NCBI RefSeq assembly: GCF_000611645.1
Contig: NW_014012938.1
Coordinates: 1-21,691 of the forward strand
Source of the DNA: Monoraphidium neglectum
Lineage: Eukaryota; Chlorophyta; Chlorophyceae; Sphaeropleales; Selenastraceae
DNA length: 21,691 bases
Direction of reading: 5' to 3'
Part shown: in pieces, positions 79 through 21,640 of the stretch
How positions within the stretch are numbered: the first letter of the stretch is position 1
Layout of the letters: each line of letters starts with the position of its first letter
Position numbers and translations under genes: made by a program
Notes under the pieces: generated by a model
Databases searched by the model: none
What the model was told of the DNA's origin: nothing
The model's input: the letters and a program-made list of their open reading frames with translations, nothing else

Positions 79-1239
79 GCGTGGCTGCGGAGGCGCCTCG
101 CTCGGCAGGACGCACACCTCTTGCTCTGGTCAAGTTCAGCAACGGTGTTGCATCGCCGCGGGATGGCAGCACGGGCGCTTGCGCACAGGGCCTCTTGCTC
201 AGCTGCGGAAGCCTCTGATGCGCTGCGCGCAGCCGCTCGCCCAGGGACAAGGGCTATGTGTAGTGGCAGCGGCGGGGCTAGGGCCGGGGTGGGGGCCTTG
301 TGCAGTGGTGGCAGGATGGGTTAAAGTTCTTTCAGCCCTTTATAGCGCTGCAGGCAGCTGCTGTTTTCTACCCCGTGATCTGATGTGCAGCAGGGACACT
401 ACGTCTTCCTTCCATTGTGTGAGTTACTGGAGAGATGAATGATCTGCAGCAGCGCGCTCACAGCGTGCGACCACACCTGCTGGTGATCGTGGCGCGCAAC
501 AAAGTGTAAACCTCAGTCACATTACAGCATTTCACATCACAGTGAGCCGACGGCAAGGTTGAGAGCAAAATGGTACACAAGGCTCTACAAGCAACCCAGC
601 ATCAAACCATTACTGCAGCACAAGGCCGTGTCACTGCGACCGCCCTGCACCGCGATGCGCCCGCCGCGCGGTCGTGTCAGGGGACAAGCCAGGGGCCCGC
701 GTCAGCACGCCGCACCGCCCCCGGCCGCCCACGTGGCGGCCGCATCGCGGTGCAGGCAGCCGCTGTTTTCTAGCTCGTGATCCAACATGCAGCAGGGACC
801 TGCTCATTTGCTTCAGGTGTGTGCTCAAGTCGAGAGACGAATGATCTGCAGCAGCGCGCTCACAGCATGCGACTTCTCCTGCTGGTGATCGTGGCGCGCA
901 ACAAAGTGTAAACCTCAGTCACATTACAGCACCTCACCTCACATCGAGCTGACGGCAAGGTAGAGAACAAAATACACAAGGATCGACAAGCAATCCAGCA
1001 TCAAATCGTCAGCGCAAGGCAGGAGTAGGACGACCGCCCTGCACCGCGATGCGGCCGCCACGCGGTCGTGTCGAGGGCCACGTCAGGGGCCCGCATCAGC
1101 ACGCCGCGCCGCCCCCGGTCGCCCATGCGCGCCCGTGACGGCGGCCGGGAGATGGGCCCGCATCAGCGCGCCTCGCCGCGCCCGCACCCCTACCCGCGCC
1201 GGCACCCCTACCCGCGCCCGCGCCCCCACCCGGCGGCCC
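79..1239. other. Intergenic region with convergent 3' ends and a tandem repeat
   Basis: I see no convincing gene here. The short open frames are Arg/Pro/Ala-rich and have no recognisable motif. The stretch is dominated by the ~402-bp tandem duplication described separately. Each copy carries a TGTAA on the plus strand (505-509 and 907-911) and a TTACA, which is TGTAA on the minus strand (522-526 and 924-928). TGTAA is the usual green-algal polyadenylation signal, so these could serve transcripts arriving from either side. A short C-rich direct repeat of the form gcacccctacccgcgcc lies at about 1183-1220, just downstream of the stop of the large minus-strand gene. Confidence 0.5.
345..1148. 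repeat. Direct tandem duplication, about 402 bp period, two diverged copies
   Basis: Copy 1 starts near 345 and copy 2 near 747. Matching landmarks are all offset by 402 bases: ctgttttcta at 361 and 763, gatctgcagcagcgcgctca at 441 and 843, aaagtgtaaacctcag at 501 and 903, and attacagc at 521 and 923. The shared block around gccctgcaccgcgatgcg also recurs in both copies. The copies differ by substitutions and small indels, so the duplication is not recent. The outer boundaries are approximate. No open reading frame, terminal inverted repeat or transposase is visible. Confidence 0.8.
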
Positions 1240-4200
1240 CTAGCCGCCCACGCCCCCGCCGCCGCCCCGCCCGAACAGCTTGTCCAGCAGCGCCACCGGC
1301 GGCCGTGCCTTGCCGCTCACGGGCCGCCCCATCACGTCAAACGGCCCGGCCTTGCGCCCCGCCGTGCGCCGCGCCTCGCGCCGCGCCTCTGGGGACTCCG
1401 GCTTTGGCACCGCCGCAATGGTGGCGTCCTGCAGCGCGCCGCGTAGCAGCAGCGCCGGCCCCGCCGCCGCCGCCGCCGCCAGCCCAACGCCAGGCTGCAG
1501 AGGCCGCCCGCCGGCGCCTGCGGCCGGGGGCGGTGGGGCGCGCGGCGCCAGGGCCTGCATTTCGAGGGCCGCGGGGTCGTCGCGCGCGGCGCCGGCGGCG
1601 GAGGCGTGCGCGGCCACGTCTGCGCGGGACAACTGGTAGAGGCGCCGCAGCTCCGGGCTCGCCTGGAGGGCAGGGGGCGGCGGGCAGGTGCGGCGGGTGT
1701 GTGTGTGTGGGGGAGGAAGGTCCGGATGTGTCGAGAGCGCGGGGCCTCCCGGCCCGCGAGACCCGCTTCCAGCAAGCGGGCGTCGCCCGCGGCGCGGTCT
1801 GGGAATCAACGGGCGCCCCGGCGCGTGTTCACACGCCCTGCACGGCCCCGAGCCGCGGGCTCCCACCTGGAACAGGCCCCCTCCCATGTACTGCACATCT
1901 GTGTAGTCCAAGCGCCGCGCACGCGCGCCCGCGGGCCGCGCCCCCGCCCCTGCCGCCGCGCTCCGCGCGCCACCGCCGCCGCTGCCATTCCCGGGCTCCC
2001 CCGCCAGGCAGCTGTCGCCGCCACCACGGCGCCGGCGCCGCAAGTCAATCGCTGCCAGGAGGCGGCCTTTGGGGTCGAGCGCCTGCCGGGGCTGCGCCGC
2101 GGCGCCTTGCAGGCTCCCGGGCGCTGCGGACCCGCTTGCCGGCCTGCTGCTGCCGTCCCCACCCCCGTCCCCATCCTCGTCGCTGCCGCTGCCGCTGCCA
2201 TCGCCCCCAGCCCCGCCCGCCGCCACCCAAGCGGCAGCGCCGCCGCCGCCCGCCGCCGCGACGCGCACGGCGCGGTGGCGCACGTGCTGCGCGTTGCGCG
2301 CCGCGACCAGCGTTCGAGGGTGGTCGCGGCCGAGGACCTCGGACAGCAGATCGCGCGCGCCCTCCAGCAGCCTCAGGCCGCGCGCGCTCTGGCCGAGACG
2401 GTCCAGCACGCATCCGAGGTTGTGAGCGGCGACGGCGGTGTCGGCGTGGCCGGGGCCGAGGGCGGCGCACTCCTGCCGGATGACCAAAGCCCTCACGCAG
2501 TGCTCAAACGCGCCCTGAGGAGGTTGTGCCGGCCGGGGGCTCGCAGTCAGAAATACGAGGTTGCAAAAAGCAAGACCCAGGAAAGTTTCCGTCTTCACGC
2601 TCGCATCTTTGTGGCCGTGTGAGGGCGGCTGCACGCTTTGTCAAACCATCCGGGTCTGTGTGCGGCGGCGTCCGTCAGGCCGGAGAGCACGCCGATGCCA
2701 CCGGCCGCCGCCCAAGCTTGGACGCGCTCCAACACCCCCTTCCCCCCCCTATTGGTGAAACCACCAAAGCAGGTCAAAACCCTGCCATGACACACGCGCC
2801 CCTTCGATCGGCACCCACGAGCAGGGCGCACAACACCACTAACATGCAGCCCGTTGGATGGCCCCGTAAAGCACAGCATCCCCAGCCACAGCACGCAGCC
2901 CTGCAGGCGGCCCCCACCTGCAGGTCCCCCAGGTGGTGCATCACCACCCCCGCAGCGCCATGCCACGCCGCCGCCTCCGCCCCCGCCTCGTGGACCCACG
3001 CCAGCGCCGGCGCCGCACTGCGCAGCTCCCGCAGCGCCGCGGCGTCGCGGCCGGCGGTCAGCAGCACGCCGGCGGCGGCGCGGCCGAAGAAAAGCGTCAG
3101 CTGCGGCCCCAGCGGCCCCGCAGCCGCTGAGCTGCCCGTTGCGCGCTCCTGCTCGGCCCCGGCGTCGCACTGCCCCTCCTCGCGCCACGTCAGCGTGCGC
3201 GCAGCCCTCAACCCGCGGACCTTACAGTCAAAAGGTGCGTCTGCACCCAAATCCAAACCGCAACTGCTGCAGGAGGATGTGTCGTCGTCGCCGGCGGCGC
3301 CGGCCGTGGCGCAGGTGGCGCCCCGCGCCTCCCAAGCCTCCCGCGCCGCCTGCAGCAGGGCCAGGGCGTCGTCGCAGCGCCGCTGCGCGTGCGCGTCGCA
3401 GGCGGCCCGCACCAGCTCGCGCACCGCAGGAGGGCAGCCCGCAGGCGGCAGCACGGGCTCCTGTGTGTGTTGAAGCGACAGTGCCAGACGTGTATGCATC
3501 AAAAGGTGCGCATCGTAGTTGGCTTCTGACGCCGCCGCACCTGGCTATGCAAGAATGCAGCAGCCTGGCTCTCAGGTGCGGCGCATGCGTCCCTGCCTGC
3601 ACCCAGCCCGAAAGCCCGACCTGGACAAAGCAGCGCCCCACCTGCAGCAGGACTGGCTTGTAGTAGGAAGACGACAGGTAGCTGCCGCCGCCGCCGCCGC
3701 CCGCAGCAGCCTCGAGCTCTGCACACTCTGCCGCGCCTCCCGGCGCCCGTGCGTCCGCCTGCCCCCCAAAGTCCATGGCCCACCACTCTGCGTACGGGTC
3801 GGCGCCCGCCTCCCGCCCGCCGCCGCCGCCCGCCGGCCCGAGCTGCGCGGCGCCGCCGCCGCCGGCGCCGGCCATCAGCGCGGCGTGCGCCGGGAGCGGC
3901 GGGAGGCCGAGCTGCGTGAAAAAGGCGGCCAGGCGCTGCTCCGGCCGCGCAAAGGCGCCGCCGAAGCGGCGGGCGCGGAAGGCGGAGAGGCCCAGCAGGG
4001 CGAGGGCTTCGATGAACTCTGATGGCTGGAGGTCCGACACCAGGTGGGTCTGATGTGGGCAGAAGGGCGCCGGGGTTGGGGCGGGCATGTGGCAAGGGGC
4101 TGGGTCCGTCGGGGTGGGGTGCGGTGGGTTAGGGTGGCGTGAGGGCAGTCGGGCAGGTGTCCTTTGTTGACGCGAGGAGAAACAGAGTGAAGGATGTGTG

Positions 4201-7200
4201 CTTGCTCTTCCTGCAACCAAGGGTAGTTCCAATTCCCATTGTTGAAATGATGACCGAGAGGTGCTGAGCTAGCACGATGCATAACCCGCACGGCCGCAGC
4301 CGCGAGGAACCTTTGCCTGCAGCCGGCCCCACCGTGTGCAGCCTCGCCCACCTCTGGCCGGCCCCCAAAGTCGACGCGCCGCAGCGCCTCCTCTACATCC
4401 CAAGGCTGCAGCAGCTGCGGGATGGCGCCCCTATCCTGCAGCAGCACAAACAGGCTGCGGAAGCTCAGAGGACACAGCGGAGGCCCCCCATCGTCATCCC
4501 TTGTGGGGCCCTCTGCCGCGGCGGGCGGCGGGCTGTGCAGCTGCGGCCGCTGAGGAGATGTCGAGCAGGGCTGGCCAGACGGCGCCGCGTCGGCGTCGAG
4601 CGCGGCCGCTGCCTGCAGCAGGCGCTGCATGTCGGGCGCCCAGGCCTGCAGTAGGGCCGCCACGCCGGGCGTGTGCAGCGTGGCGCTGCACTCGTCAAAC
4701 CTGGGGGAGCCAGGGTGCGTTGGCAAGGTTGGGTGCGGGTGCAACGTGCGAGTCGCACCAGCAAAAAACCACCAGGCTTTCATTGACAACATCACAACCC
4801 CTCACAGCACCCCCCAACTGCGCCACTGCTGGTCCGCCTGCCCGCACCCGCCCGCCCCACCTGTTGCGCCGCCGCTGCACCGCAGGCGTCACGTGGCGCT
4901 CCACCAACAGGCACCAGGCAGTGACCTTGTTTGCAATTCGCGGGTACTTGGCGCACGCCAGCCGCCGCAACGCCTCGCCAAACTGATCTCCTGTCAGGCA
5001 GGGCCGCGGGGGCGTCGCCGCCAGGCACGGCGCGGCGCCGGAACCCGCGCCCAGGCTCGAGCTTGAACAGCTGCTGCCGCCGCTGCTGTCTGTCGCCGCG
5101 GTGACACTGCTGCTGGGCCGGCTGCCACCATCTCCGTCCTGCGTGCTGTGCCCAGGGCTCGCCGATGAGGAGGGGCTGGGTGAGCAGCTGCGGCCCGCAC
5201 TGCCCTCCTCCCCTTCCTCCGCCCCTCCCTCCTCGCTCCCGCTGCCCGTCCCGCTCCCAGAGCCGGCGTCGTCGCTGCTCTGCGCCTCGCTGCTGCGGCT
5301 CTGATCGGCGACGCCGCCAGTGACGCGCCCTTGAGGCCCACGACCGCTGGCCCGGGGCCCCTGTCGCGCTCCTGACGGCCCTCCCTTCTGCCTGTGTCCG
5401 CCAGCAGCCTGCGCCGCGCCGCCGGCCCCGCCCCAGCCGCGGCGCAACCGGTCCTCCGCCGCCAGGCTGGCCCTCGCGTCGACGCCCAGCTGGGCCAGCC
5501 GCTGCTCCGCAACACTTTGCATGAATGGCGACTGCGCGCCCCCGCCGCCGCGGGGCCTGCAGCCGGCCGCCTCGTCGCCGCGGCCGCCAGCCCCAGGGCC
5601 GTCCGCCCGCGGCGGCGCGGCGCGGCGGGCCCTTTTGGGGGGCGGCGGCTGCTGGACGGGTACGCAGCCAGAGGTGAGGCCTCGAAATAGGGCGTCCGCC
5701 TCTGACAGGGGGACACTGCGGGAGGCGGCGCAGCAGGAGGGATTGGCAATCATGTGCATTGCGGGATGGATGGCGCGAGGCCGCCAACGCGGAGGGGGCG
5801 CCGGCTGCGGCAAGCACGCACTCTGCTAGAGAAGCAGCCGTGTGTCCCCGCCGCGGATGCAGGTTCTAGGACAGTGAGCCAAAGGGGTGAGGCAGCGCCG
5901 AGCGTTTGCAGTGGAATCGCCTGACCCTAGCCACGGCTGGCGGCGCAGGGCCGCCCGCCCCGCCCACCTGCGGTCTCCCTCGCTGGCGCCGCCGCCCCCG
6001 CCGGCCGCGCCGCCCCCACAGATCTTCGCGTCGAGCAGCAGCCGCCTGAATCCCGGCAGATCCACAGCAAACGCCGCTGCGCCGCGACACTGCGACCCGC
6101 GTGCCGCGCTCCCCGCCGCCGCAGCAGCCGCGGTCGCGCCGGCCTTTGGGCCGCGGCCATAGACGCTCTGCGAGTCCAAGCTGCAGCTGAGCGAGTAGCA
6201 GCGCCGCACAGCGGCCTGCAGCTCGGCCTCGGCGCGCCGCCCGGCTGCGGGGCCGCCGCCGCCGGCGGCCGCTGGGGCGAGCCGCGGGGCGGCCGCGGAG
6301 CTTCCTCCAGCAGGGCCCGAGAGCGCCCGGTCTCGCCAGCGGCGGGCCAGGTTTGTGACGGTGCGGAGGTGCTCCTGGGCGGGTGGGAGGAGGGTTGGGG
6401 ACCCGGGTTTGTGATCGACGTTGGCCTCTGCATTGCTGCACAGCGCCTCACGCGACAGGGTCTCACCCGGGCCCGCCGCCGTTGTTGCAGGCGCCGGCGC
6501 AGAGCTGCACCTGGTGTGCCCGCAAGCCCACGGCTGTCAACGGGCAACCCCGTCGGCCAGCCCTGTCGCGTCGCGCGTCATGCGCCGCGAGAGGTGGCGT
6601 GGAGTGGGTGCTGCAGCACTCAGCTATAGCCGTTTTCACTGAAACCCCCTGGCCACCTGAACCTCGCACCTGCAGCTCCGGTCCCAGCTCCAGGGGCGGC
6701 GCCGCCTTGGCTGTGAGGTCCAGCAGCCCGCTGCACCTCAGGGCGGCGCACACCAGCAGCAGCTCCAAAAACTGGGGGTAGCTGACGCGCGATGACATCA
6801 GGTCGACGCACACGCCGGCGCCGGCACCGACACCCGCGCGGCGGCGCGCGCCAGGCTTCGCACTGCCGGTCACGCGCGGCTGCTGGCCCTGTTGCTGCGT
6901 GGCCTGCGGGGCAGCGCATGGCGGTCCCGTTGCTGCGCTGTCAGCAGGACCCACCACGAAGCTGCCCAGCAGCTCCGCTAGCACAAACACAGTCCATGTG
7001 TCCTGCCGCTCCTGCTCGCGCTCCGCAGCCACCACTGATTCAGAAGCGGCGGCGGCCTGCTGCTGCCTGAGCAGCGCCTGCTGCTCCTGGAACGTCGCCC
7101 CGCCGCCGGCCCCTGAGCGGGTCCCCGGGCTGGCGCCGCCGCCGATCCCGCGGGGCGGCAGGGACGACATGCGCGACGCGGCGCTTCCAGTGCGCCGCGG

Positions 7201-8502
7201 CGTCGCGCGGCCCTGGCCGCCGTAGCTGCCGCAGGCTGCTGCGATGCGGTCTGGCGCTGCGGTACCCGCGTGGCGGGCGCGGGTGGGCACCAGTACCGCG
7301 TCGTCCAGCAGTGACCCGTCGATGACGTCACCTACGTGCAGGCTGACGTGGCATGGGGGGTTGCACAGGGCGGGGGCCATACTTGGGCTATTAAATGGTG
7401 GGTTGGCAGGTATGATCACATGAGCAGGGGGGATGCAGGATCCGTTGTTGCCTGTTTGTGTGTGTGAACACACACACACACACACATGTGTGTTTGTGTG
7501 TGTGGAAACACACACGTGTGTGTTCACACACGCATGTGTGTGTGTGTGAGTGTGACTGTGTGTGTCTGTTTGTGTGCACTGACCCCTGAAGCGCCCTGGG
7601 CCCTGTAACCAGGCCAACTGCGGCCTGACAGTCACCCGGTGTGAGCTGTCCAGGGCCCCACCTTTCTGGCTCCCTGCTGGCCCGCCTGCTGAAGCCGGGG
7701 CCCGCCATGCGCCTGCTGCCAGACAACGTGCGGGCGCTGCCGCTGCTCCACTGCCGAGACAGCCCCAAGCCTGCGCCGGGCGGAGAGGCCGGCGGCGCGC
7801 CGCCTGTCCCCCACTGACCAGACCAGTCCTCGTCCTCGCTGCTGCTCCCCCAGCGGCGGCTTGCGCCGCGCGTGAGCGGGGAAGCCCCAGGTGACTGAGG
7901 CGCGGGCACGTGCTGAGGCGGCTTGCTGCCGGGCGCCTCCTGCGCCGGGCGGCTGCCGCCCCCAGAGCGGCGGCTGGGGACTCTGGACAGCGTGCGGCGC
8001 AGGCCGGCGGCGCCGGCGCCCCCGCTGCTGCTGGCCTGCTGGCCGCGCCGCTGGTGAGCTGGGGCGGCCTCCTCCAAAAGCACCCCCAGCCCAACACCGC
8101 CAGGGGTCCTTGAAAAGAAAGGGGTGGGAAGAAGCGGGCTATGAGTGCAAGCGAGTACCTTGATGGCACGCGCGCGTTCCCTCTTGCACTGTGCGGGCAC
8201 GCTGACCTTGTGTCACAGCTCGGACGCCGCACCTGGCGCGACGCCCAGGCAGCTGCTGCGTCCCGTCCAGAGCCTCCCCGAACGCCGACGGCCCGCGCGC
8301 CGGCATGAGCAGGGACGGCATCATTGGAGCGCCGCTGCTGCCGCCAACGCGCCCCTCCATGTCGCCGGGCCCCGCGCCCGCCAACCGCTGCAGCTGGGCG
8401 ATGTACAGGGTCAGCACGCGCGGCACAAGGCCCGCCTTGCGCAGGAATGCCGCCAGGCGGCCAAGCGGCAGCCCAAAGCGTGCAGCAGCTGCCTGCTGCA
8501 GC

Positions 8503-8567
<65 letters not shown>

Positions 8568-11500
8568 CGGCCCCCGCTCAGCGCCCTGCGCCGCCGCCCC
8601 AGCCGGCGCAGACTCGGCCCAGGCTGCGGCTTCGCCTGACATGGCGGCGTCCTTCATCCCCAGCCGCGCGTCGGCCAGGCTGATCGACAGGTCGGCTGCG
8701 CTGCCGCCGCCGCCCGCCAGGTGCACGTAGATCCCGTGCAGCATCTCGCTTGCGCCGGCTGTCGAGCCTGCGGCGGCGGCAGCGCCGCTGCAGCCGTCCT
8801 CGAGGGCGGTGATGATGTCGGGCTGCATGACCTGTCGCAGGATCCACGGCGGGCCGCGGTCCGCGCGCCGCCCCCGCAGCCGCGCCACGTGCCGCGCCGC
8901 CAGCAGGCGCAGCAGCGCCTCGGGGTCCCGCCGCAGCGGCGGGTGGCGGTTGCGTGTCAGCAGCAGCAGCAGCTCCAGCAGCTCTGCGGGGTCCAAGGTT
9001 GTGGGGCCCCAGCTGCTTCGGACCGTGGCGCCGCCGACGCCGTTTGGGGTGCGGCCTCTGCTGTCCGCCGGGCCGCCTCCGCCGCCACTGCCGGCCGTGC
9101 TGCCAGGAGGCGGTGATCCGCGAGCGCCCGGCAACGGCGGCCGCCCCAGGGGCGGCGACGCTGCCGCGATGGTCAAAGGCACGCCTGGCCGCTCCACCGG
9201 GAGGAACAGCAGGCGCGGCGCCAGGCCGCCCGGCGCACCATCCTCCACTCCACCCTCTCCTCCAGCGCCGCCGCTGCGTGGCCTCAAGTCCGGCGCCGGC
9301 GCCGGCCCCGGCGGCTGCTGCCGGCTGTGTGCGGGCCCGAGCCTGCCCAGCTTCCGGTGCAGCATCAGGCGGAAGGCGTCGCTGATGTCAGCGTACTCTG
9401 TGACGTCATCGACCAGGCCGATTTCGCGGCACAGCATAAACACGCCGTGCAGGGCCACCTCCAGCTGGAGGGGCGGCTGGGCTGCAGCTGCACCTTCCAT
9501 TGCCTGCGGCCGCAATTGCAACTGCGACTGCGGCCCAGGCTGAGCCGCGGCGTTGGAGTGCGGAGTGCTCGCGGCAACCGCGGAGCCTGAGGAAGTTGCA
9601 GTTTCCGAAGGAGCCTTCAGCCGCTGGGTTGGGCCCTGGTGGTGTGCCACCTGGTTAGCGAGACCTGCGCCGGCGCTGCTGCTGCCAGGCCCTTCCTGTG
9701 GCGCCGGCTCGGCGCCCCCTTCGACAATCGCACCCCCTGTGGGCCCCGCTTCACAGAACGATACCGCCTTGCCCGCAGCAGCCCCTGCGGCCGCCGCGCC
9801 CCTCTTCGCTGCCAGCAGCGGCGGCAGCGCGTCGCCGCTGCCGCTGCCGCTTCCGGCGTGGGCGGCGCGGCCGCCGCCACCGGCCGGGCCTGCCTGCTCC
9901 GCAGGTGCCACGCCGAACGCGCCACCAGCCCGCCGCGGCAACCCAATCGACACGACTGTGGACGGAGCGTAGGCACGGCCGCCGCCCATCGACCGCGCGC
10001 CGCCGCCTGCGTCGGAGCCGAGCACGCTCCCGCGCGTCACGCAGCCGGCCCCCGCCGCAGTGCTGGCGCCGCCCCAGGTGCTCGCTGCGCAGCCAGCGCT
10101 GCCGCCGCCGCCGCCCACCGCGCCGGCCCCGGCGTCGAGAGGGAGCAACCCCGCCTCCTTGGCGCCAGCGCACGCGCGCATGTACGCCCTCAATACTGCC
10201 AGCACTGCATCGCGCACCTCCGCCACGGACGGCGTGTGAATGCTGGGTCCGCAGAGCAGCAACGTGTGCGCCTCGCCGCAGGCCAGCTGCTCGGCAGCTT
10301 CCTCGTCCGGATCGTACGGCGGGCTTGAGCCCAATTCGTGGCGCGGCCACTTTTGCTGCCGCTCTAGCGCTGCTAACCTTTCAAGGGCGCCTTCCGTGTC
10401 GCTGTCGCTGTCATTGCCATCGCCGTCGCCGTTGCTGCCGCCGGCAGCGGCAGGCTTGGTGGCTGTCAGAGGCGCGGTGGCTGCGCTCGCCGACGACTGC
10501 GGGGGCTGCTGCACGTGCAGTGCAACCCTCACGCGGCCCGCTGCGCTAACAGCGCACTGCACGCTGATGCGCGGCTGCTCAATGGCGCTGGGACCATTGA
10601 TTGCAGGCGGAGGCGCAGCTGGCGCTGCTACCGCTTGCTGCTGCTGCCGCTGCTGTGGCTGCTGCTGTTGCTGCTGCTCAAGCGCCCGAGAACGCTCGCT
10701 CTGCGCCTGCGCACGCATGCTTGGCGGCATGGCCGCACGGCTGCCAAACAACAGGAGGGCCCCGCCTTCTGTCACCGCCGCCGCGCCCTCAACGCCGCAC
10801 GCAATTGCGCGGACTGGGGAGCCAGCCAGCCACGCGACCGGCGCATGCTTTACGGTCTCGCTGGCCCCTGCTGCGCCTGCACCGCCGCCGCCGCCGCTGC
10901 CGCCACGGCCGCTGCTGCCGCGGCCGCCGCCGCCGCCGACCAGCGCGCAGTCGCCCCAGACGTACAGCTCGCCAGAGCATCCGAGTGCCATCGACGCGGC
11001 TCCTGCGGCTACAGACACACACGGCCGCAGGCCCTGCACCTGGGCTGGCGCCAGGCGGTCCCTGTTGTCCGCAAGGCCCAGCGCGCGGCGCCCGTTGTAG
11101 CCGAACGCGTACACGCGGCCGTCGGCGGTCAGCGCGAGCGTGTGGGCGCTGCCGCAGGCGGCCTGCAGCACCGTGGCGCCGCGGAGGGCGCCGTCCACCG
11201 CGGAGGGCGGCTGCGCGTCGGGCTCAAAACCCAGGCCAAGGCGGCCATACCTGGGTGAGCACGCAGGGGGCCCGCGGGCAGACCTAAAGCGTGGCCAGGC
11301 TGCCCCAAAGCGGCGTCTAGAAGGAGTTGCGGCGCTGCAGGGCTGCCCCGCAGCTGGCCCTCCTCAGGTGCAGGGACATTTGTGCTTGGCAAGCGCGACT
11401 GCAGAGCCCCCTGTCCTGAGCCGCGCGCCTCACCTGCCGCACCCAAAGGCGCACAGCACGCCGCCCTCCTGGACCACCGCACTGTGCTTTGACCCGGCGG

Positions 11501-12900
11501 AGACGTGGACCAGGCGCGCGCCGTCGAACGAGTGCACGCGCGCCGGCTGCCAGATGGTTTGACATGCGCTGCACGGCAGGCCGCACTGCCCCTGCGTGTG
11601 GTATTGACGCGGAGTAGGACTAAGGGGCGCGGTGGGCGTGCGCAAAGCGCGAGTGCCGGCCCTGGCCGGCTGGTCACGCTCGAAGCCGGCGCCCCTACCT
11701 TTGAATTGTCGCCCCAGGCCATCAAGCCGGACGACTGCAGGCTGGCCAGGGTGTGAGCCTGCAAAGCGGCAGGGGCACGGCATGGTTGCGCTGGCAGGCT
11801 TCAGTTCTCCGCCACTGACTGACGACAACTCAGGCTGACGTGGTTGGCTGCTGAGTGCTCAGGGCGAGACTCCGCCTGTGCAAACCAGCTGCAGTGCCGG
11901 GGTGCCGCTGATGCCCATTGCGAAGCAACCACTCTCAATCGACTCACCGCGCCGCAGGCCACCATGTGCACCGCCTGGCCAATGGTTACGCGGTAGACAT
12001 GCAGCTGTCTGGCAGACGCCCCGTCCGCCTCGGCGGCGGCACACCCCTCAGGAACGGCCTCGATTTGGGCGTTCGCCTCCAGCGCCTGCTGCTGCTGCCT
12101 GTGCAGCGCCTGCTGCTGCTTCAGGGATTGCAGCAGCGAGGGCGGCAGGCGCACGCTGCTCGCAAGAAGCGCGAGCGAGTCCAGCTTTGTCAGCCGCCGC
12201 GACGCGGCATCACCGGTTACACTGGTCTCATCGCCCACATCGGCAGGCAGCGCGTGGCTGATAACAGGGGCTGCGTCCTTAGCGACACCGCACTGGCCGG
12301 CTTCATTGGCGCCCCATGTGTAAACGTGCCCCGCCCCGTCTGCTGCGGCGCTGTGCGCGCGGCCAGCGGCGCAGCTGACGAATACAACGCCGCCGCGGAT
12401 CGACAGCGGCTCCGCGCTGCTAACGGCTGGCGTGCTGGCATCGGCGCCGTCGGGGGCGCGGCGGCCAAACGTCCAGACGCGCCGCTGCTGCACACTGCCG
12501 GACAGCACCTCCCACACGCGCAAGCAGCGTGTTTCGGTCGGCAGGTGCAGCGACGCGCCTGCGTAGAGAAGCAAGCCGTGATTGAGAATCTCACATGCAA
12601 AACTGCATGCAGATCCTCCAGGCAACAAGCCGATGGCTCAAAACACACGGGCCAAGCGCGGGCTGCTTTGAACACGTGGGTGCAAATGGCTGCATGCCCA
12701 CCTCGCCGCATGTGTCGGAGCCGATCCATGACGGCCTTTGCATCGTCAATCGCCACCTTGTAGTCAAGCAGCTGCCGCGAGGGCGACCGCAGCTGTTGGT
12801 GGGCATGCTGTTGCAGCTGTGGGTCCAGCTGCTGTTGCTGCTGCTGCCCTCCTCTGGCTGCCACATACGGTGCTGGCATGGGCGCCAGCCGCCCTGGCAT
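1240..12900 (-). CDS. Giant multidomain protein: RCC1 propeller, EF-hand/TPPP-like modules, TPR
   Basis: Fourteen exons (minus strand, high to low): 12900-12702, 12558-11948, 11758-11699, 11591-11434, 11250-8233, 8108-7662, 7342-6670, 6374-5968, 5715-4861, 4700-4352, 4049-3642, 3460-2918, 2514-1867, 1662-1240 (stop). All thirteen introns are GT-AG and all junction phases agree, giving about 2932 residues. Order: Gln-rich N-terminus; RCC1 repeats (~93-677); low-complexity Gly/Ala/Ser/Gln linkers with a 21-residue polyglutamine at ~1239-1259; at least four degenerate EF-hand/TPPP-like modules (~942-2310); TPR region (~2396-2657); basic, Gly-rich C-terminus. The ATG at 12900 is the first in-frame Met I can support, and an upstream exon is not excluded. 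RCC1 domains often bind or regulate small GTPases and TPRs bind partner proteins. The EF-like plus TPR half resembles flagellar-associated proteins as I remember them. Cellular role is unknown. It could be two fused models, but no promoter or stop separates them. Confidence 0.8.
2272..3460 (-). other. TPR (kinesin-light-chain-like) coding segment
   Basis: Exon 12 opens with EPVLPPAGCPPAVRELV, then helices such as CDDALALLQAAREAWEA and RELRSAAPALAWVHEAG. The exon 12/13 junction falls inside a repeat: HHLGDLQ joins GAFEHCVRALVIRQ in phase 0. It continues with HADTAVAAHNLGCVLDRLG and the GRDHPRTLVAARN end typical of kinesin-light-chain-type TPRs. TPRs of this type bind partner proteins. The repeat continuity across the 403-bp intron is good evidence that the splice is right. 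Confidence 0.8.
7454..7577. repeat. Alternating TG and CA blocks (imperfect dinucleotide repeat) in an intron
   Basis: This lies in the 319-bp intron 7343-7661 of the giant gene. Runs of TG alternate several times with runs of CA on the same strand, for example tgtgtgtgaacacacacaca and gtgtgtgttcacacac. Adjacent TG and CA blocks are reverse complements, so nested hairpins or Z-DNA are possible. One minus-strand frame stays open through the block as a His-Thr/Cys-Val repeat, but the splice model removes it. Confidence 0.85.
8502..8564 (-). repeat. Uninterrupted CAG repeat encoding polyglutamine
   Basis: About 21 uninterrupted CAG codons on the minus strand (CTG on plus) lie in the 3-kb fifth exon of the giant gene and encode polyglutamine at about residues 1239-1259. 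Purity at codon level suggests recent or ongoing slippage rather than selection for glutamine alone. It sits between two EF-like modules, so length changes would only alter a linker. Shorter, interrupted Gln tracts occur near 10630-10680. Confidence 0.9.
10248..12558 (-). other. RCC1-type beta-propeller coding segment
   Basis: RCC1 signatures in order: VWTFG; FVSCAAGRAHS with VYTWGANEAGQCG; VHMVACGA joined by splicing to AHTLASL with GLMAWGDNSKGQCG; VHVSAGSKHSAVV with VLCAFGCGRYGRLG; AACGSAHTLALTADGRVYAFG; VSVAAGAASMALGCSG with LYVWGD; AIACGVEGAAAVTEGG with LLLFGSR; and a final LACGEAHTLLLCG. Taking the last fragment as pairing with the first VWTFG strand gives a seven-bladed propeller. About 150 residues of Gln/Ser/Asp-rich sequence separate the last full blade from the closing strand. 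Three introns split repeats at or near blade positions, supporting the splice model. Confidence 0.85.
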
Positions 12901-13136: not shown

Positions 13137-15337
13137 TCACGAGCTGGGTGGCGTGGTGAACAGCAGGGACGCGTTGGTGCCACCAAATCCGAACGAGTTG
13201 CAAAGCGCCGCCATCGGCCCGCTGCCCAAGTGCAGCGCGTTGCCCGCGACCAACAACGGCAGCAGCAACGGGTTGGGCCGCTCCAGGTTGGCCGTCGGTG
13301 GCGCGACGCGCGCATGCAGCGCGAGGACCGTAAACGCGGCCTCGACCGCGCCGGCGGCGCCCAGCAGGTGGCCTGTCGCGCCCTTCGTTGACGACACCGC
13401 CAGCCGCCCCACCAAGCGCTCGCCAAACACCTGAAGGATCGCCTGCTGCTCGATCTCATCGCCCGTCGGCGTGCTGGTCGCGTGCGCGTTGATGTAGCGC
13501 ACTGCAGCGGGGTCGACGCCGGACCCAGCGAGGGCGCGCGCCATGGCGAGCGCGGCGCCAGCACCGCCAGGGTGGGGCGCAGTGATGTGGTGGCCGTCGC
13601 CAGACATCCCGTAGCCGCGAACCTGCACGCATGCGGAGGCGCGGCACAGCGCGGCGCCGCGTCACGCCGCTCGGCATCACATGCACACGCGCATGTCGCC
13701 GCTTGGCAGGCCGACGCTGCTCAGCATGTTCCAGACGGGGGCTCCGTTGCAGCGGCCCATGGCCGTGGCACACCACGCAGAATCACCTCAGCGTACGGCT
13801 TCCGCCCGCGCGCCAGCGCGTGGCCGAGCTCCTCCAACACCAGCACCCCCGCGCCCTCGCCCATGACAAAGCCGTCCCGCCCCGCGTCAAAGGGCCGGGA
13901 CGCGCGCTCTGGGGTCGCGTTGTACGCCGTTGACAGCGCCTTGAGGCGGCTGAAGCCGCCCAGCCCGATCGCATCGATGGCCGCCTCTGCCGCGCCGGCG
14001 AGCTGGGGGTGCGTTTTGGCGCAGCAGCAGGCGGCCCGACGAGTGAGGAAAGATGGAAGTTGCAGCTGTGGGTGCAGCTGCACGTGCACTCAAACGTGTG
14101 CACTAACGTTCGCTGCAGCACCCCCCCATGTGCCGCCAGGCCCTCATCCATTCCCAGGTGTGCAGGCATGAAAAACATTTCAGCCGCCAACCTACCATGA
14201 CGTCAGCGTCCCCCCGCTGCACTGCCCTGAACGCGTCACCGACCGCGTGCACCCCCGTGGCGCACGCCGTCGACGGCGCCAGGTTGGGGCCCTGCAGGCT
14301 GTGCCTGATGCTGACCGCGCCGGCCGCCATGTTGGGCAGGATGCGGGGCACAAAGTAGGGCGACACCCGCCGCAGCCGGCCGGCAGCGATCAGTGTGGCC
14401 GCGTCAGCGGTGTCAGTTGTAGAGCCGATGCCCGCGCCGATGCAGACGCCGGTGGCGGCGCGCTGCTCAGGCGTGGAGGGTGCCCATCCGGCGTCAGCCA
14501 GAGCCTGTGAGTGGTGGGTTATGCAGGGGGGGGAGCTTAGGGACGCAAGTCCCTTTTGACCGACGCCCTGGGGCGGTGCAGCCAAACGGCGTGGTTTTAA
14601 ACCTTTGCGCATCCTGCCGGATGAAGGCATATCGATTATACCAGCACCAAAAGTGTTTGCGCGGCACTTCCAGGAGCCGTGAACCCATTCGCTCACAGCA
14701 GTACTCGCCTCTGCTGCAGCGCACAGGGCAAACTCCATAAAGGGTGCGTTGCGGCGCGAGTCATTGCAATCATAATGCGGCCACGCCGCCAGCTGGTGTC
14801 GCGGCACGGCAGCGATGACACGGGAAGGCAGCGTCTCGAAGGCGCCGCGCTGAGGCTGCGGATTGGGGGGGCGCGTTGACGTGGAATGCATATTGGGGGT
14901 GATGCGTTTTTGGAACATGTGCCCCCTGCGTCGCATGCTCCAGGTCAGTGGCATGACCTCAGGCGCACAATGCATCTGTGAGCACGCCCATGCAGCGGCT
15001 GAAATCTTCCTCTGCCACAGGAGGGGCTGCGGCGCACCTCTGGCAGGTCCTCCGGCAGGAGCGCACGCGTGCCAGTGCGCCCCGCCACGAGCGCCGCCCA
15101 GCTGTCAGCCGCGCCAGCGCCAACTGGGCTGACGATGCCAATGCCCGTGACCACCACGCGCCGCTGCGGCAGCGGTGGCAGGCTGCCAAAGGGGTCCGCT
15201 GCGGTGGAGAGCCCGTGCGCGCCTGCTGCGAAGGGGCCGCATGCAGCAGTGAAGGCAGCTGTGTTGGCTGCCCTCAAATGTGCCAGACCAATGGCAGCTT
15301 TGGTCGTGACTGATTGCGCCACTGAACACCATGCCAT
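13137..15337 (-). CDS. mtKAS: Beta-ketoacyl-ACP synthase (FabF/KAS II fold), mitochondrial type
   Basis: Five exons: 15337-15038, 14849-14709, 14504-14196, 14002-13787, 13622-13137 (TGA). All phases are zero, giving 483 residues. The enzyme condenses acyl-ACP with malonyl-ACP. The catalytic triad is visible: Cys228 in [13 protein letters not shown], His369 in [12 protein letters not shown] and His407 in [14 protein letters not shown], with conserved Lys402. The domain begins at [15 protein letters not shown] (~59) and ends with [13 protein letters not shown], so it is complete. The first ~55 residues lack acidic residues and are rich in Ala, Ser, Thr and basic residues, as in an organelle targeting peptide. 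The stretch [20 protein letters not shown] resembles mitochondrial KAS more than plastid KAS I/II. In mitochondria it would build octanoyl-ACP for lipoate. Plastid targeting cannot be excluded. Intron 2 appears to be GC-AG. Confidence 0.92.
14505..14708 (-). other. GC-AG intron in the KAS gene
   Basis: The donor is GAG|GCGAGT at 14709/14708 and the acceptor CACTCACAG|GCTCTG at 14505/14504. Joining gives AAAEALADAGW, the expected KAS sequence, in phase 0. No GT donor nearby preserves the protein, so a non-canonical GC donor is the simplest reading. Confidence 0.75.
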
Positions 15338-15682: not shown

Positions 15683-18106
15683 ATGGAGTTTGCGACAACA
15701 GATGATATGGAGGGCATGCTGGTGAGCGCATAAGTTCGAGGTAAATCGCGCAAGGGCTAGAGTCTGGCGTGCACAGCAGACAGCAACGCCAAGACACTGC
15801 CGTACATACAGTACATGGGTACAGAACGGCAATGTGAGCGCCACCAGCATTTGCCGACATTCCAACCTGCATCCGAGGGTTTGAGCAAACCCTTTTGGCA
15901 TAGAGAAAATGAAGAGTGAAGCATGCATGGTGCTGCCTCATTGCCCACAACCAGGCCAGGTATGACTGCTGGGTGTTTGATTGCGACGGGACCCTGTGGA
16001 AGGGGAACCAAGTGATTTCTGGCGTCAGGGAGGCGCTGCAGATGCTGCGAGACCAGGTGTGCAGGGACTTTACGCCAGCTGGGTTAATGTCTATGGCAGA
16101 ATCAGTGGCTGTGCAGGGTGTGTGCTGCAGAAGAAGCGCTTGGCGTTGTGCATCCTGAATGGTGCACAAGCATACCAAAATGCAGGGTATTCAACCATGT
16201 TGCTGCACCTTTCTTTTGCCCAGGGCAAGCAGGTGCTCTTTGTCACCAACAACAGCATGAAAAGCCGCAAGTCTTTCAAGAAGAAGTTTGACGATTTGAA
16301 CCTGCCGGTGGCGCTGGTGGGTCCCAGGGTTTGGCGCTGGTGGGTGTAATCTCTCCAGATGTTTGGGAAATGCGGATACCGCATCGTATGTTGCATCCCT
16401 CACCCATCCCTCACAATCAATGCCCGCCGCAAATCGCAGGAGGAGATCTACAGCAGCAGCTACAGCGCAGCCGCGTATCTGCAATCTGTAGGCTTCAGCA
16501 AGAAGGCAAGCAAAGGCTAGACAGCTTTTGGGCTAATCCGCAACCCCTTGAGTCCCACGCGCTGCTTGTGCAGGCACTAGGCTAAGCATTTGCGCTCCCG
16601 CATGCGTGGTCGCTCAATCCACTCTGTCAGATCCATTGCATCTACGGCTGACCTCCTCTGCGTTTCTCCACCCACGTAGGCATATGTGCTGGGGGAGCGC
16701 GGGATTTGCGAGGAGCTGGCGGTAGTAGGCATAGAGAGCATCGGCGGCCCGGAGCACAGTGAACTGCGCGTGGATTGGACTCCCATTGACATCGACCCCG
16801 AGGTGCATTGATGTATCGTTATTGCAGCCGGTGTAAAGTGGGGTGCTGGTCATTGCACTGTCTTCTCTTGTGCTGCCGTAGGCCCCATTCAGCACGTACT
16901 TGCTGCATGAGCGATGACAGGTTTCTCAGCTGGACTGCCACACCACCTTCGCCTGCTGGAACACCATCACACAGATTGGCGCTGTTGTTTGCGGGGTCGA
17001 CCCAAACTTGTCCTACTACAAGGTGGGTCAGGGGGCAGTCATGCGCAATGAACCATCACACGCTTAATGCTCAAGACAGCCTGCCTTGCGTCTGGCGTGG
17101 CCTAGCCTGAGCCCACCTTGCGGGTGAGCTTGCCTCCTTGGAATGCCTTTCGCCCACAATGTCCGCTCTGCGCCCACCCTCTTACCCCCACCCCTTGCTC
17201 CAACACAAGGTGGCTTACGCGGGCCTCTGCTTGCAGCACAACCCTGGCTGCTTGTTCATTGCCACAAACCGGGACGCACGCGGCCACTTCATAGCAACGC
17301 AGGAGTGGCCCGGCGCAGGCGCCACAGTTGCGGCCGTCCAAGGTAAACAACCACGTATGCTGCAACTGTTCTGCACATGGCTGCATCGTACCTCACGCCC
17401 CGCGCCTGCAGCCTCACGTCCTCCATTTAGTGCGCCGTCCATGCACCGCTGCTCCCAGCTGTCACCGGGATCGAGCCCATTGTGACGGGCAAGCCAGCGC
17501 CCTTCATGATGGAGAACGTCTGCAGCACCCACAACACCCGGCCGGAGCGTATGCTGATGATTGGGGACAGGTAGGGAGGTGTCCTGTGCATGCGTGCCCC
17601 TGCTGCTTCCCTTCTTGAGAGGTGTCTAACTCAATTCGTCCTAGTTTTGGCGGTCCCGGTGTAAGATATGCCTGCTGGGAGGAACGGCGTTATCTCTCTG
17701 TAAGTCAACATGCTGTCTGGGTGGCACCACACGTGACAGGCTGGACACAGACATCGCATGGGGGCACAACACGGGGATGGGCACGCTGCTGGTGAGTTTG
17801 CCTCGCACGCTGCTCGCTGCCAACTGTCAGCAGCTGCGCCCGCCTCATTGCCTATGGTCGTGCAGCCCCGCTCACCCAGCGCTGCTGCACAGCCCAAACC
17901 CGCAGCTGGCTATGCTGCTGGCCTGCCCCACGCCCCACTGCCCCATGCCTGCGGCACAGGTCATGACTGGCGTCGTCTCCCCAGCTGACCTGGCGGCGGC
18001 GCGGCTGCAGCCGGGCTTCCAGGCCCCTGACTACTTGATGGCATCCTTTGGCGACCTGCTGGATGTCCAAAGATCGAAGCAGCTGCCGCAGTCAACTGCT
18101 CCATAG
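15683..18106 (+). CDS. PGP: HAD phosphatase of the phosphoglycolate / glycerol-3-phosphate phosphatase family
   Basis: Ten exons: 15683-15721, 15955-16056, 16224-16316, 16440-16505, 16680-16802, 16975-17022, 17210-17342, 17459-17570, 17740-17791, 17960-18106 (TAG). Phases agree and give 304 residues, the usual family length. HAD motif I is VFDCDGTLWKG (nucleophile Asp22, Asp24), motif II VLFVTNNS, motif III Lys213 in VTGKPAP and motif IV MIGDRLDTDI split across exons 8 and 9. GCLFIATNRD and FMMENV are typical C2-cap/core elements. The likely reaction is hydrolysis of 2-phosphoglycolate, the first photorespiratory step, but glycerol-3-phosphate phosphatases share the fold. The ATG at 15683 (ccATGG context) is the only in-frame Met before the domain; no plastid transit peptide is encoded, so a cytosolic isoform or an unseen upstream exon is possible. 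Intron 4 appears to be GC-AG. Confidence 0.9.
16506..16679 (+). other. GC-AG intron in the PGP gene
   Basis: The donor is AAG|GCAAGC at 16505/16506 and the acceptor CACGTAG|GCATAT at 16679/16680. Joining gives GFSKKAYVLGERG in phase 0, with the family's expected spacing. The only nearby GT (inside the TCTGTAGGC stretch) would delete six conserved residues. Confidence 0.7.
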
Positions 18107-18525: not shown

Positions 18526-18957
18526 TCACTTGCTGCCCGCCTTGTCCTCAGCCTTGGGGGCGTCGGCGGGCTTCTTCTCGGCTTCTGCTGCTTGGTCGTT
18601 CCCCGCCGCCTGCTTCAGCTCGGTCTCAAACTCCTTGGCTGCCGTCTGGAAGCTCTTGACGGTCTTCCCTAGACCCTTGCCCAGCTCAGGAAGCTTGCTG
18701 GGACCGAAGACGAGAGCTGCCACGCCCGCAATGACGACAAGCTCGGGCACGCCGAGGCCGAACAGGCCGCGGCAGGCTACCGTCCGCTGCTGCTGGAGGC
18801 CCAGGAGCTGCTTCGGACGCGAGCTACCCGCGAATGGCTGAGCAGCGGCGCCCCTGAATTGCTGCACCCGCTGGATCTGGGCGCCCGTCGCAGGCCTGGC
18901 GACGCGAGCGGGCTCGCGTCCAATCGAGACAACACCCCTACGCATCGAGACGGCCAT
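18526..18957 (-). CDS. TATA: Thylakoid twin-arginine translocase subunit TatA/Tha4
   Basis: A single exon encodes 143 residues. Residues 1-62 are rich in Arg, Ala, Ser and Gln with few acidic residues, as in a chloroplast transit peptide, likely cut around RTVACRG. Then comes the TatA signature: LFGLGVPELVVIAGVAALVF (one membrane span, ~65-84, with conserved Glu72), the FGPSKLPELG hinge, and an amphipathic helix GKTVKSFQTAAKEFETELK (~98-115). The tail (~119-143) is charged and Ala/Lys/Glu-rich. Tha4/TatA oligomerises to form the transport pore for folded proteins crossing the thylakoid membrane, with Hcf106 and cpTatC. The conserved Glu and FGP...LPELG motif favour TatA over TatB/Hcf106, although these paralogues are similar. 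The Met at 18957 is chosen because it begins a clean transit peptide. Confidence 0.93.
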   Translation of the reverse strand: MAVSMRRGVVSIGREPARVARPATGAQIQRVQQFRGAAAQPFAGSSRPKQLLGLQQQRTVACRGLFGLGVPELVVIAGVAALVFGPSKLPELGKGLGKTVKSFQTAAKEFETELKQAAGNDQAAEAEKKPADAPKAEDKAGSK

Positions 18958-19592
18958 GCTGATGGTGTATAGGGCCCGCGAATGAGGCTTGCAGGTCGAG
19001 ATGCGAGCGGAATGGTTTATTGGAGCGACGACGGCACAGCGTGAATGTTGCACGACTAAGTAGACGATCTTGTGATGCACGCATGCAAGGTGCCTGTTGT
19101 GCATCAGATCTGGCCGTGTCACCGATGGGTCACTTGAACTGCAGCTGCTGCTCCATCGAGTCAGCGGCGATGCACAACCACCCCTGCTTCACAGTATCTA
19201 GTGTCGAATATTTGATATACCGGTCTATGTGTCCAACAGCCTTCTCGTGGGCAGTTCTGCTGTCCATCTTGCACGATCCTGAGGGCCTCGGCGGACTCCA
19301 GGCGCGGACGCAGCCACCTGTTTGCTCCTTTACTAGCGCTGGAGGAGCAAATCTGAGCCCCGAGGCCCGTAAGTGGGTCGGCCCACAGGCACTCCGCCCT
19401 GCCTCTATGCCGTAAATCGGGCACAGGGCGCCCAACGCAAGACGATCCTGCGTGATGCGCTTGATGATTGCAGGTTGGTTATAACCTGTTGCTTGTGCAG
19501 GGCAGCAGTGCACCCGGCGGCCCCAGCTGTGATCATCCTGCTGCTCAGTGCGCGCTGCTTGCTGCCAAACCGTCCGCCATGCGCTTTCCACC
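18958..19592. promoter_or_regulatory. Divergent intergenic region between TatA and RING/RanBP2 genes
   Basis: 635 bases separate the TatA start from the first good ATG of the RING gene. Open frames here lack motifs and mostly lie antisense to, or run into, the RING exon. An AT-rich patch, atttgatatacc, lies near 19209-19220. No clear promoter element, RNA gene or conserved domain is visible. An untranslated first exon of the RING gene could sit here; a tgcttgtgcag splice-acceptor-like sequence ends near 19500. Confidence 0.4.
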
Positions 19593-20256
19593 ATGGCGCA
19601 GAGGCCTGCGGCGAGGATGAGCACCATGCACACAGCCAGCGTGTGGGGACAGGGGCGCGCAGCGCTGACGCTGTCGACGATGGCGGGGCGCGTCAAGGAC
19701 GGCGAGGAGGAGTGCATGATCTGCCGCGACGACGTGCCGGCCTGTGTGTCTTTCCAGCCATGCAGCCACTCAGTGTGCTTTGGGTGCGTCGAAAACATGC
19801 GCGCCAAGAACATCTTCAAGGTGGGGTCATCGGTGTGGGCGCTTTGGCGGCCGCAGCAGGGGGCGAGTGATGTGGTTGGCCGAGGGGTGGGCTGGTGCAC
19901 ACATCAGCAACCTTAGGAAGGGCAAGCCACTGCTGTCGCACGCATTTCTCACACCTGCCTTCCCCACAACTCGGGCTTGACGCGTGTGGCGCCTGCTCCG
20001 GTGCCCGGCGGCAACGCGCTCACCTACGCAACCACCCCTCTGCCGCTGCATTGCCCCCGCTTTGTGCAGCCTGACAAGGGCGTCAAGTGCCCCTTTTGCC
20101 GCTCCTACATCGACGGCTACAAGTCCCTCATAGGGTGAGGCCCTCCAGTAACGCAGAGTCCCAGGCGCATTGCAGTGGCGCTGCATGTCCCCACCTGATG
20201 GGCGTCCGCTGTAGTCAACTCGTGCACCTGCTGCTACTTTCCTTGGGCCCCTGGAG

Positions 20257-20305
<49 letters not shown>

Positions 20306-21640
20306 GGCATCAGCAGCGACGTCAGAAGCAGCAGCACAGCAGAAGCAGCAGCAGCAGATGCAGCAGCATGCCCTTCTCGCACAGTGCCTTGCCGACCCTG
20401 ACCCGCCCTGAACAACACGTGCATTGCACTCCGCGCTTCTCCGGTGCCTCCTGGCCTGCCGCAGGGCCGACCCGTCCGTGCTTGCATTCCTGGAGAAGGC
20501 CAACAAGGCGGCGTCGACGGCGGCGCAGGCGCGTGCGATCATGGAGCGCAAGGCGGCGGCGGCGGCACGTGCGGCAGTGTCTGATGGGCGGGCGGCGTAC
20601 TCTGGCGGCAGGAGCCAGGTGGGCTGCGTGATAGGGGGGCGGACAGTTGCGCAGCTGGGCGGCGGCAGGGCGGTGGCTGCAGAAGCAGCAAAGGTATTAA
20701 ATGCAGCGGCAATGTCTAGTTGAGCCTTTGCTGGGCCAGGCTGCATTCTGCGGCACCAGCCATGCACCGGCCGCTAGGTCGAGCGAGCACCGCATGAGAA
20801 CTCCTGGCAGCAGGATTCAAGCAGTGAGCGGAGCACCCCCTTCTTGTTCCACGTGCAGCATGCAACCAGGCCCCCTTCTCGCCACCAATACCTGTGCGGC
20901 CCCCGCCCCTACCTCGCCACACCTCTCAACCTCAGGGCACGACGTCGACATCGGCGTACCAGTCTGCGGTGTCTAGCCAGGACGACCGCTGGAACTGCCA
21001 GGGCTGCGGCGGCACCAACTACATATGGCGCGAGTTCTGCAGCCGATGCCGGCGCCCCAACCCGTCGCCACCGCCGGCCCTGGGCTTCAACAAAAAGGTT
21101 TGATTTTGAAGTGCAGGGATGAGGTGGCTACTTTTGCCGTGGATGTGCTATGTGGGCTGCCGTGGCACATGCACGCACGCACGTTTTGCAAAGTTTTGTT
21201 GCGCTCAACAATATGCACAGGGCCTCGCAGCTCGTTGAAGCTGAAGGGCGCCCCTCTGAGTCTGTTTGACGCTGCCCTCTGGCCCCTTTGCACACCGCAT
21301 ACCCGCCCTGCTCCGCCCTGCATAATATCTCCTGCCGCCCCACCCCTGCCCCCTCTTTGGCGTGAGGCCCACCCCCTGATTCTCTAACCCTGCACACGCC
21401 AACCCTCACGCGCACCACGCTTGCCGCTCGCCTTGACCCCGGACCCAACCCAGGAGATTCTCAAGATGTCTCCGGAAGAGATTGTCGCCCTGATCCGCGA
21501 CAAGGGCGGCCTGGGTCTGGCGCGGCCGCTGCTGGACATGGGCGTCAACGTGGACGCGTTCAAGATCACGGGTGCGTGTTTCTGGGTATGTGAGTGCGCG
21601 TGCATGCGTGTGCATCACGTTGCAAGCTCGTGTGTGTGTG

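What the first reader, a model, noticed from the sequence alone, without database searches (positions are those of the whole stretch)
1240..12900. A ~2930-residue RCC1 / EF-like / TPR fusion protein
Fourteen exons join without a phase error and link an RCC1 propeller, repeated EF-hand/TPPP-like modules and a kinesin-light-chain-type TPR in one polypeptide. I cannot name a characterised protein with this order. RCC1 domains are found in ciliary regulators such as RPGR, and EF-like plus TPR combinations occur, as I recall, in algal flagellar-associated proteins. A ciliary scaffold with a GTPase-regulating head is a testable idea, not a conclusion.
Basis: partly seen in the sequence, partly recalled or inferred. 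Interest (0 to 1): 0.8.

Follow-up and report, generated by a model that had tools for sequence, protein, structure and literature searches.

The report
Giant algal RCC1-TPR scaffold protein
A green-alga gene of 14 exons encodes one very long protein that joins a seven-bladed propeller, conserved helical blocks and a repeat domain; the same order occurs in relatives from Chlamydomonas and Astrephomene and, in part, Volvox, so it is a real, conserved and unstudied protein, perhaps of the cilium.

Summary
The gene is real. Fourteen GT-AG exons on the minus strand (12900..1240) join in phase to a 2932-residue protein. It is one gene: collinear relatives exist in Chlamydomonas schloesseri (3854 aa) and Astrephomene gubernaculifera (3135 aa, partial), each with RCC1 and TPR in one polypeptide, and in Volvox africanus (2417 aa, partial, without the RCC1 end). 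So the order is not unique to this genome; it is a conserved family named only as hypothetical. RCC1 and TPR are solid. The middle gives no EF-hand hit; it shows weak, sub-threshold p25-alpha (TPPP) similarity, mainly in the volvocine relatives. The propeller is nearer UVR8 and RPGR than the Ran exchange factor RCC1, so a GTPase-regulating head is unsupported. The host genome has dynein heavy chain sequence on nine contigs, a radial-spoke head protein and a TPPP, hence axoneme genes; IFT57, IFT81 and BBS2 models found nothing. Best reading: a scaffold linked to the cilium or basal body; the place is inferred only.

The parts
12702..12900 (-). exon 1, start codon at 12900; Q-rich N-terminus
   Evidence: no aligned block with relatives; C. 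schloesseri has about 400 residues before the first block
11948..12558 (-). exon 2: propeller closing strand (WTFG), blade 1 and start of blade 2
   Evidence: aligns to P0001 409-536
11699..11758 (-). exon 3: RCC1 blade 2
11434..11591 (-). exon 4: RCC1 blade 3
8233..11250 (-). exon 5: RCC1 blades 3-7, linker, helical modules A1 and A2, run of 20 Gln (residues 1239-1258)
7662..8108 (-). exon 6: low-complexity linker
   Evidence: no aligned block to relatives
6670..7342 (-). exon 7: start of helical module B1
5968..6374 (-). exon 8: end of B1 and start of B2 (weakly p25-alpha-like in relatives)
4861..5715 (-). exon 9: end of B2, linker, module C1
4352..4700 (-). exon 10: module C2, first part
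3642..4049 (-). exon 11: module C2, second part, and linker to TPR
2918..3460 (-). exon 12: TPR region, first part
1867..2514 (-). exon 13: kinesin-light-chain-type TPR (TPR_12) and linker
1240..1662 (-). exon 14: conserved C-terminal block and stop codon
10248..12484 (-). RCC1 seven-bladed propeller, residues 92-677, with an N-terminal WTFG strand and a C-terminal GEAHTLLLCG strand that would close the ring; blades placed by eye
2266..3656 (-). TPR region, residues 2391-2659
   Evidence: fold judged from the Volvox fragment

Best explanation
One gene encodes a conserved giant scaffold of green algae. Its N-terminal seven-bladed RCC1 propeller and C-terminal kinesin-light-chain-type TPR region are two separate protein-binding ends. 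Between them lie six conserved, mainly helical blocks separated by fast-evolving, probably disordered linkers; part of these resembles the tubulin-binding p25-alpha (TPPP) family. Most likely the middle contacts microtubules of the cilium or basal body, while the ends hold partner proteins or cargo. Shown: the single polypeptide, its domain order, its conservation, and that the host has axonemal genes. Inferred: scaffold action, tubulin contact and ciliary place. Not supported: nucleotide exchange on a GTPase.
For: Gene and order: (relatives in C. schloesseri, Astrephomene, Volvox; C. schloesseri models were made with BRAKER and RNA-seq, PMC8226300, passages seen). RCC1 and TPR_12 over cut-off in the spliced protein; RCC1 also in relatives. 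For the volvocine C1-to-TPR alignment, kinesin light chain is the only kind of solved chain listed (6 chains, best E 0.12), and the TPR part of the Volvox model (84 of 545 residues at pLDDT 70 or more) has kinesin light chain on top in Foldseek (best E 1.3e-3, none at or below 1e-3). p25-alpha: E 0.02 and 0.03 for module B2 in 2 of 3 volvocine pieces; against the host's own TPPP, 9 of 56 module comparisons had p<=0.01, all in A1 or B2. Axoneme genes in the host: DHC_N2 on 9 contigs, AAA_8 on 6 (5 shared with the 9), Radial_spoke on 1, p25-alpha on 1. p25-alpha proteins track flagella, and FAP265 (Chlamydomonas TPPP) is at basal bodies and flagella (PMC10304595 passages; PMC5607191 abstract).
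Against: No localisation, proteome or expression data were found. IFT57, IFT81 and BBS2 Pfam searches of the host were empty (in the last two nothing rang in any control, so they do not show absence). Dynein heavy chain hits by themselves include non-axonemal dyneins, and contigs may hold pieces of one gene. p25-alpha similarity is below cut-off, absent for the spliced window protein and for C. schloesseri; in the window protein it rests on a nine-residue match in A1, while its B2 block was not distinguished (p 0.076 and 0.51) and low-complexity stretches scored nearly as well. The four sequences compared are related, so the 56 tests are not independent. AlphaFold of the volvocine A2-to-B2 stretch failed (mean pLDDT 34). 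No protein named as from Chlamydomonas reinhardtii was returned, so no flagellar proteome entry could be tied to the family.
Confidence: 0.5

Rival explanations
1. A cytosolic or membrane-associated signalling or trafficking scaffold with no special tie to cilia, its propeller working like those of UVR8 or HERC proteins.
For: Propeller is nearest UVR8 and also close to HERC1/HERC2 by sequence; the helical middle has no family hit over cut-off; cilia-specific localisation is untested.
Against: No HECT, kinase or other catalytic family appears at E<=10 in the spliced protein; the three relatives found are from volvocine algae, flagellated as I recall; weak p25-alpha similarity.
Confidence: 0.35
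2. A guanine nucleotide exchange factor for a ciliary GTPase, as the first reader's 'GTPase-regulating head' suggests.
For: The fold is shared with RCC1 and RCC1-like exchange factors.
Against: RCC1 itself scores far lower than UVR8 and RPGR (about 7e-26 against 8e-61 and 1e-42); long inserts interrupt the propeller between blades 1-2 and 6-7. I did not test RCC1's catalytic residues one by one.
Confidence: 0.1
3. Two or three neighbouring genes wrongly joined.
For: Exons 5-6 hold long low-complexity linkers; exons 1 and 6 have no aligned block in relatives; no transcript data for this genome.
Against: RCC1 and TPR lie in one predicted protein in both C. schloesseri and Astrephomene, and aligned blocks occur in 12 of 14 exons.
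Confidence: 0.04

Closest known systems
Hypothetical proteins HYH02_006197 (Chlamydomonas schloesseri), Agub_g3309 (Astrephomene gubernaculifera), Vafri_2921 (Volvox africanus)
   Same: Same order of blocks over the shared length; 29-48% identity in the collinear BLASTP pieces.
   Different: The first two are longer (3854 and 3135 aa, the latter partial); the window protein has its own poly-Q and glycine-rich inserts. Vafri_2921 is partial and lacks the RCC1 end.
UVR8 and RPGR (RCC1-like propellers)
   Same: RCC1-type blades (UVR8 E 8e-61, RPGR E 1e-42); seven blades in the window protein by eye.
   Different: No helical blocks or TPR are known to me in those proteins (recalled); the window propeller carries long inserts.
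Kinesin light chain TPR domain
   Same: TPR_12 type over cut-off; nearest solved chains for the volvocine alignment and for the Volvox model, neither significant alone.
   Different: No other part of kinesin light chain matched.
TPPP / p25-alpha proteins, e.g. Chlamydomonas FAP265; RCC1-type domain plus two p25-alpha in Cladocopium CAI3986388
   Same: Weak p25-alpha similarity in module B2 of relatives; an RCC1-type and p25-alpha combination is listed in a dinoflagellate (PMC10304595 passages).
   Different: Below Pfam cut-off; no TPR is listed for the dinoflagellate protein.

Membership tests
RCC1-like propeller proteins | RCC1 repeats over Pfam cut-off forming a seven-bladed propeller | tested here: met
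   WD40_RLD 161.2 bits (cut-off 150) and RCC1 111.7 bits (cut-off 21.7) in the spliced protein; seven blades plus closing strand placed by eye in window and P0001; no structure solved or modelled for it
RCC1 (Ran exchange factor) proper | closest similarity to RCC1 among solved propellers | tested here: not met
   UVR8, RPGR, HERC1 and HERC2 rank above RCC1; exchange activity not testable here
EF-hand proteins | EF-hand family match | tested here: not met
   none at E<=10 in the spliced protein, in P0001 or P0002 or in 9 module pieces
TPPP / p25-alpha | PF05517 match over its cut-off (22.6 bits) | tested here: inconclusive
   14.6-15.6 bits in Astrephomene and Volvox, none in the window protein; 9 of 56 shuffle-controlled comparisons p<=0.01
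Kinesin-light-chain-type TPR | TPR_12 match over cut-off | tested here: met
   39 bits, cut-off 30.1; TPR_10 28.4 bits in the exon 13-14 frame but 24.8 in the spliced protein, cut-off 27.5
Volvocine RCC1-TPR hypothetical family | RCC1, conserved helical blocks, TPR and C-terminal block in one order | tested here: met
Ciliary or axonemal proteins | presence in cilia or basal bodies | not testable with these tools
   no proteome entry found; only the host's axonemal genes were shown

The most novel reading that the evidence does not exclude
An undescribed class of giant microtubule-linked scaffold of green-algal cilia, in which a UVR8/RPGR-type propeller and a kinesin-light-chain-type TPR are joined by a chain of diverged p25-alpha (TPPP) modules, so that cargo or signalling partners are tethered at both ends to ciliary tubulin.
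Probability: 0.25. Interest if true: 0.6.

Novelty: new variant of a known kind. Interest (0 to 1): 0.4.

Why it matters
It names a conserved, uncharacterised giant protein of green algae, reachable by knock-out and tagging in a Chlamydomonas. If ciliary, it would add an RCC1-propeller scaffold to the axoneme or basal body and a parallel to ciliary proteins of the RPGR type.

Tried and rejected
EF-hand reading: no family hit. Tandem copies of one module: hhalign among seven blocks gave at most 12.8% probability (21 pairs). Profile search of solved structures: 0 hits at E<=10 for the volvocine alignment covering blocks A2 to B2 (alignment id A1), and 6 kinesin light chain chains, best E 0.12, for blocks C1 to TPR (alignment id A2). 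AlphaFold of A2-B2: unusable; of C1-TPR: usable only in the TPR part. NCBIfam on P0001 and P0014: only a bacterial TPR model far below its cut-off. The homologue search on the C-terminal half returned 8 proteins: 3 family members including the query, and 5 TPR proteins. No relative outside volvocine algae was found, but each of the 3 searches needs shared five-residue words and scored only the candidates sharing most words (7972, 1936 and 7980). No protein named as from C. reinhardtii was returned in the 3 searches; I do not know why. The first regex for propeller blades caught only some of them, so blades were placed by eye. One search scanned open frames that leave out exons 3, 10 and 12; one search repeated the scan on the spliced protein.
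Full report
Observation. The gene lies on the minus strand. I rebuilt it by listing open frames, reading splice borders by eye and checking them in a script: 14 exons, 13 GT..AG introns of 107-403 bases, consistent phases, a 2932-residue product ending at 1240. Third-position G+C is 0.71-0.91 in all 14 exons.

One gene. A search of the full protein returned 13 proteins; 2 of 13 share the RCC1 and TPR order: Chlamydomonas schloesseri HYH02_006197 (3854 aa) and Astrephomene Agub_g3309 (3135 aa, partial). The other 11 carry RCC1 families; 7 of them are named HERC2 or HERC2-like. A search with the Chlamydomonas protein returned itself, Astrephomene, Volvox africanus Vafri_2921 (2417 aa, partial, without the RCC1 end) and two proteins that share only RCC1 families. 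Nine of 14 BLASTP pieces against C. schloesseri run in the same order through the protein; the other five are cross-matches among RCC1 repeats; 20 local shuffles gave none. Alignments of seven blocks and of the C-terminal block add to this. Aligned blocks lie in 12 of 14 exons, not in exons 1 and 6. C. schloesseri gene models were made with BRAKER and stranded RNA-seq (PMC8226300, passages), so that model is not blind prediction, though I did not see reads over this gene.

Domains. In the spliced protein WD40_RLD (161 bits), RCC1 (112 bits), RCC1_2 and TPR_12 (39 bits) pass Pfam cut-offs; TPR_10 and TPR_NPHP3 do not. Seven blades can be placed by eye in the window protein and in P0001, with a WTFG strand on the N-terminal side and a CGEAHTLLLCG (CGEGQTVCLCG in P0001) strand about 570 and 940 residues later. 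Against solved structures the propeller ranks UVR8 (8e-61), RPGR (1e-42), HERC1 and HERC2, then RCC1 (about 7e-26). The TPR part of the Volvox fragment models as helical hairpins, 84 of 545 residues at pLDDT 70 or more; kinesin light chain leads the Foldseek list, with no match at or below E 0.001.

The middle. No EF-hand family appears; one EF-loop-like pattern lies in a low-complexity stretch at 2681 and none in three relatives. p25-alpha PF05517 appears at E 0.039 in the whole Astrephomene protein, and at 0.02 and 0.03 for module B2 of Astrephomene and Volvox, not for C. schloesseri or the window. The host's own TPPP, found on contig C8, was compared with seven blocks of four proteins: 9 of 56 comparisons gave p<=0.01 with 2000 shuffles, four of them A1 in all four proteins and five B2 in volvocine proteins; the four proteins are related, so these are not independent. 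The window's B2 gave 0.076 and 0.51. With 100000 shuffles, A1 of the window gave 6 as good or better, but over nine aligned residues only; B2 of Astrephomene gave 171. Slid along the whole window protein, the second TPPP peptide is best at A1, while the first scores 39 at B2 and 38 and 36 in other stretches. Modules did not resemble one another by profile comparison, and AlphaFold failed for the A2-B2 stretch. I call the p25-alpha link suggestive.

Host. The window is given as contig C661:1-21691 of a 34.6 Mb assembly of 1632 contigs. Dynein heavy chain motifs fall on nine contigs for DHC_N2 and six for AAA_8; a radial-spoke head protein and a TPPP are present. IFT57, IFT81 and BBS2 models found nothing, which is weak evidence as the search runs exon by exon; the IFT57 search rang below cut-off in 3 archaeal controls and the other two in no control. 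The host thus has genes of a motile axoneme. I did not identify the species; 'green alga' rests on the volvocine relatives.

Meaning. The protein looks like a scaffold: two interaction domains at the ends, conserved helical blocks between low-complexity linkers. Its place at the cilium is inferred from the company it keeps and from weak p25-alpha similarity. Literature: FAP265, the Chlamydomonas TPPP, is at basal bodies and flagella and its loss hinders flagellar reassembly (PMC5607191, abstract); p25-alpha occurrence follows flagella, and one dinoflagellate protein is listed with two p25-alpha and an RCC1-type domain (PMC10304595, passages). RCC1 repeats also occur on two Toxoplasma myosins of the conoid and apex (MyoH, MyoL; PMC7951837, passages), a parallel for RCC1 on cytoskeletal proteins, not a relative. 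Eight paper searches aimed at this protein listed nothing that describes an RCC1-TPR algal protein; one search showed 25 of 34 papers. I opened six papers, by passages or abstract only; two of them (PMC8754002; PMC10605206) mention RCC1 only in unrelated ways.

Noticed in passing
window 342-731 and 744-1125: Two tandem copies of about 390 bases, 82% identical, just beyond the 3' end of the gene; each holds a TGTAA (minus strand, at 522 and 924), the algal poly(A) signal as I recall it.
   Followed up: partly
window about 13137-15300, minus strand: Beta-ketoacyl synthase gene directly upstream on the same strand; the stop of its last open frame lies about 240 bases from the start codon of the RCC1-TPR gene.
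   Followed up: partly
window about 15980-18106, plus strand: HAD-type hydrolase, probably phosphoglycolate phosphatase (Hydrolase_6 just under and Hydrolase_like over the cut-off; the enzyme name is my inference).
   Followed up: partly
window 18526-19188, minus strand: Open frame of the TatA/Hcf106 family.
   Followed up: partly
window about 19533-21600, plus strand: Gene with a C3HC4 RING-like zinc finger slightly below the Pfam cut-off, probably running off the window's end.
   Followed up: no
window 8488-8566: CAG/CTG repeat coding a run of 20 glutamines inside exon 5, absent from the three relatives.
   Followed up: partly
own genome contig C8, 20335-22724 (L017-L019): TPPP gene that seems to carry two p25-alpha domains.
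   Followed up: partly
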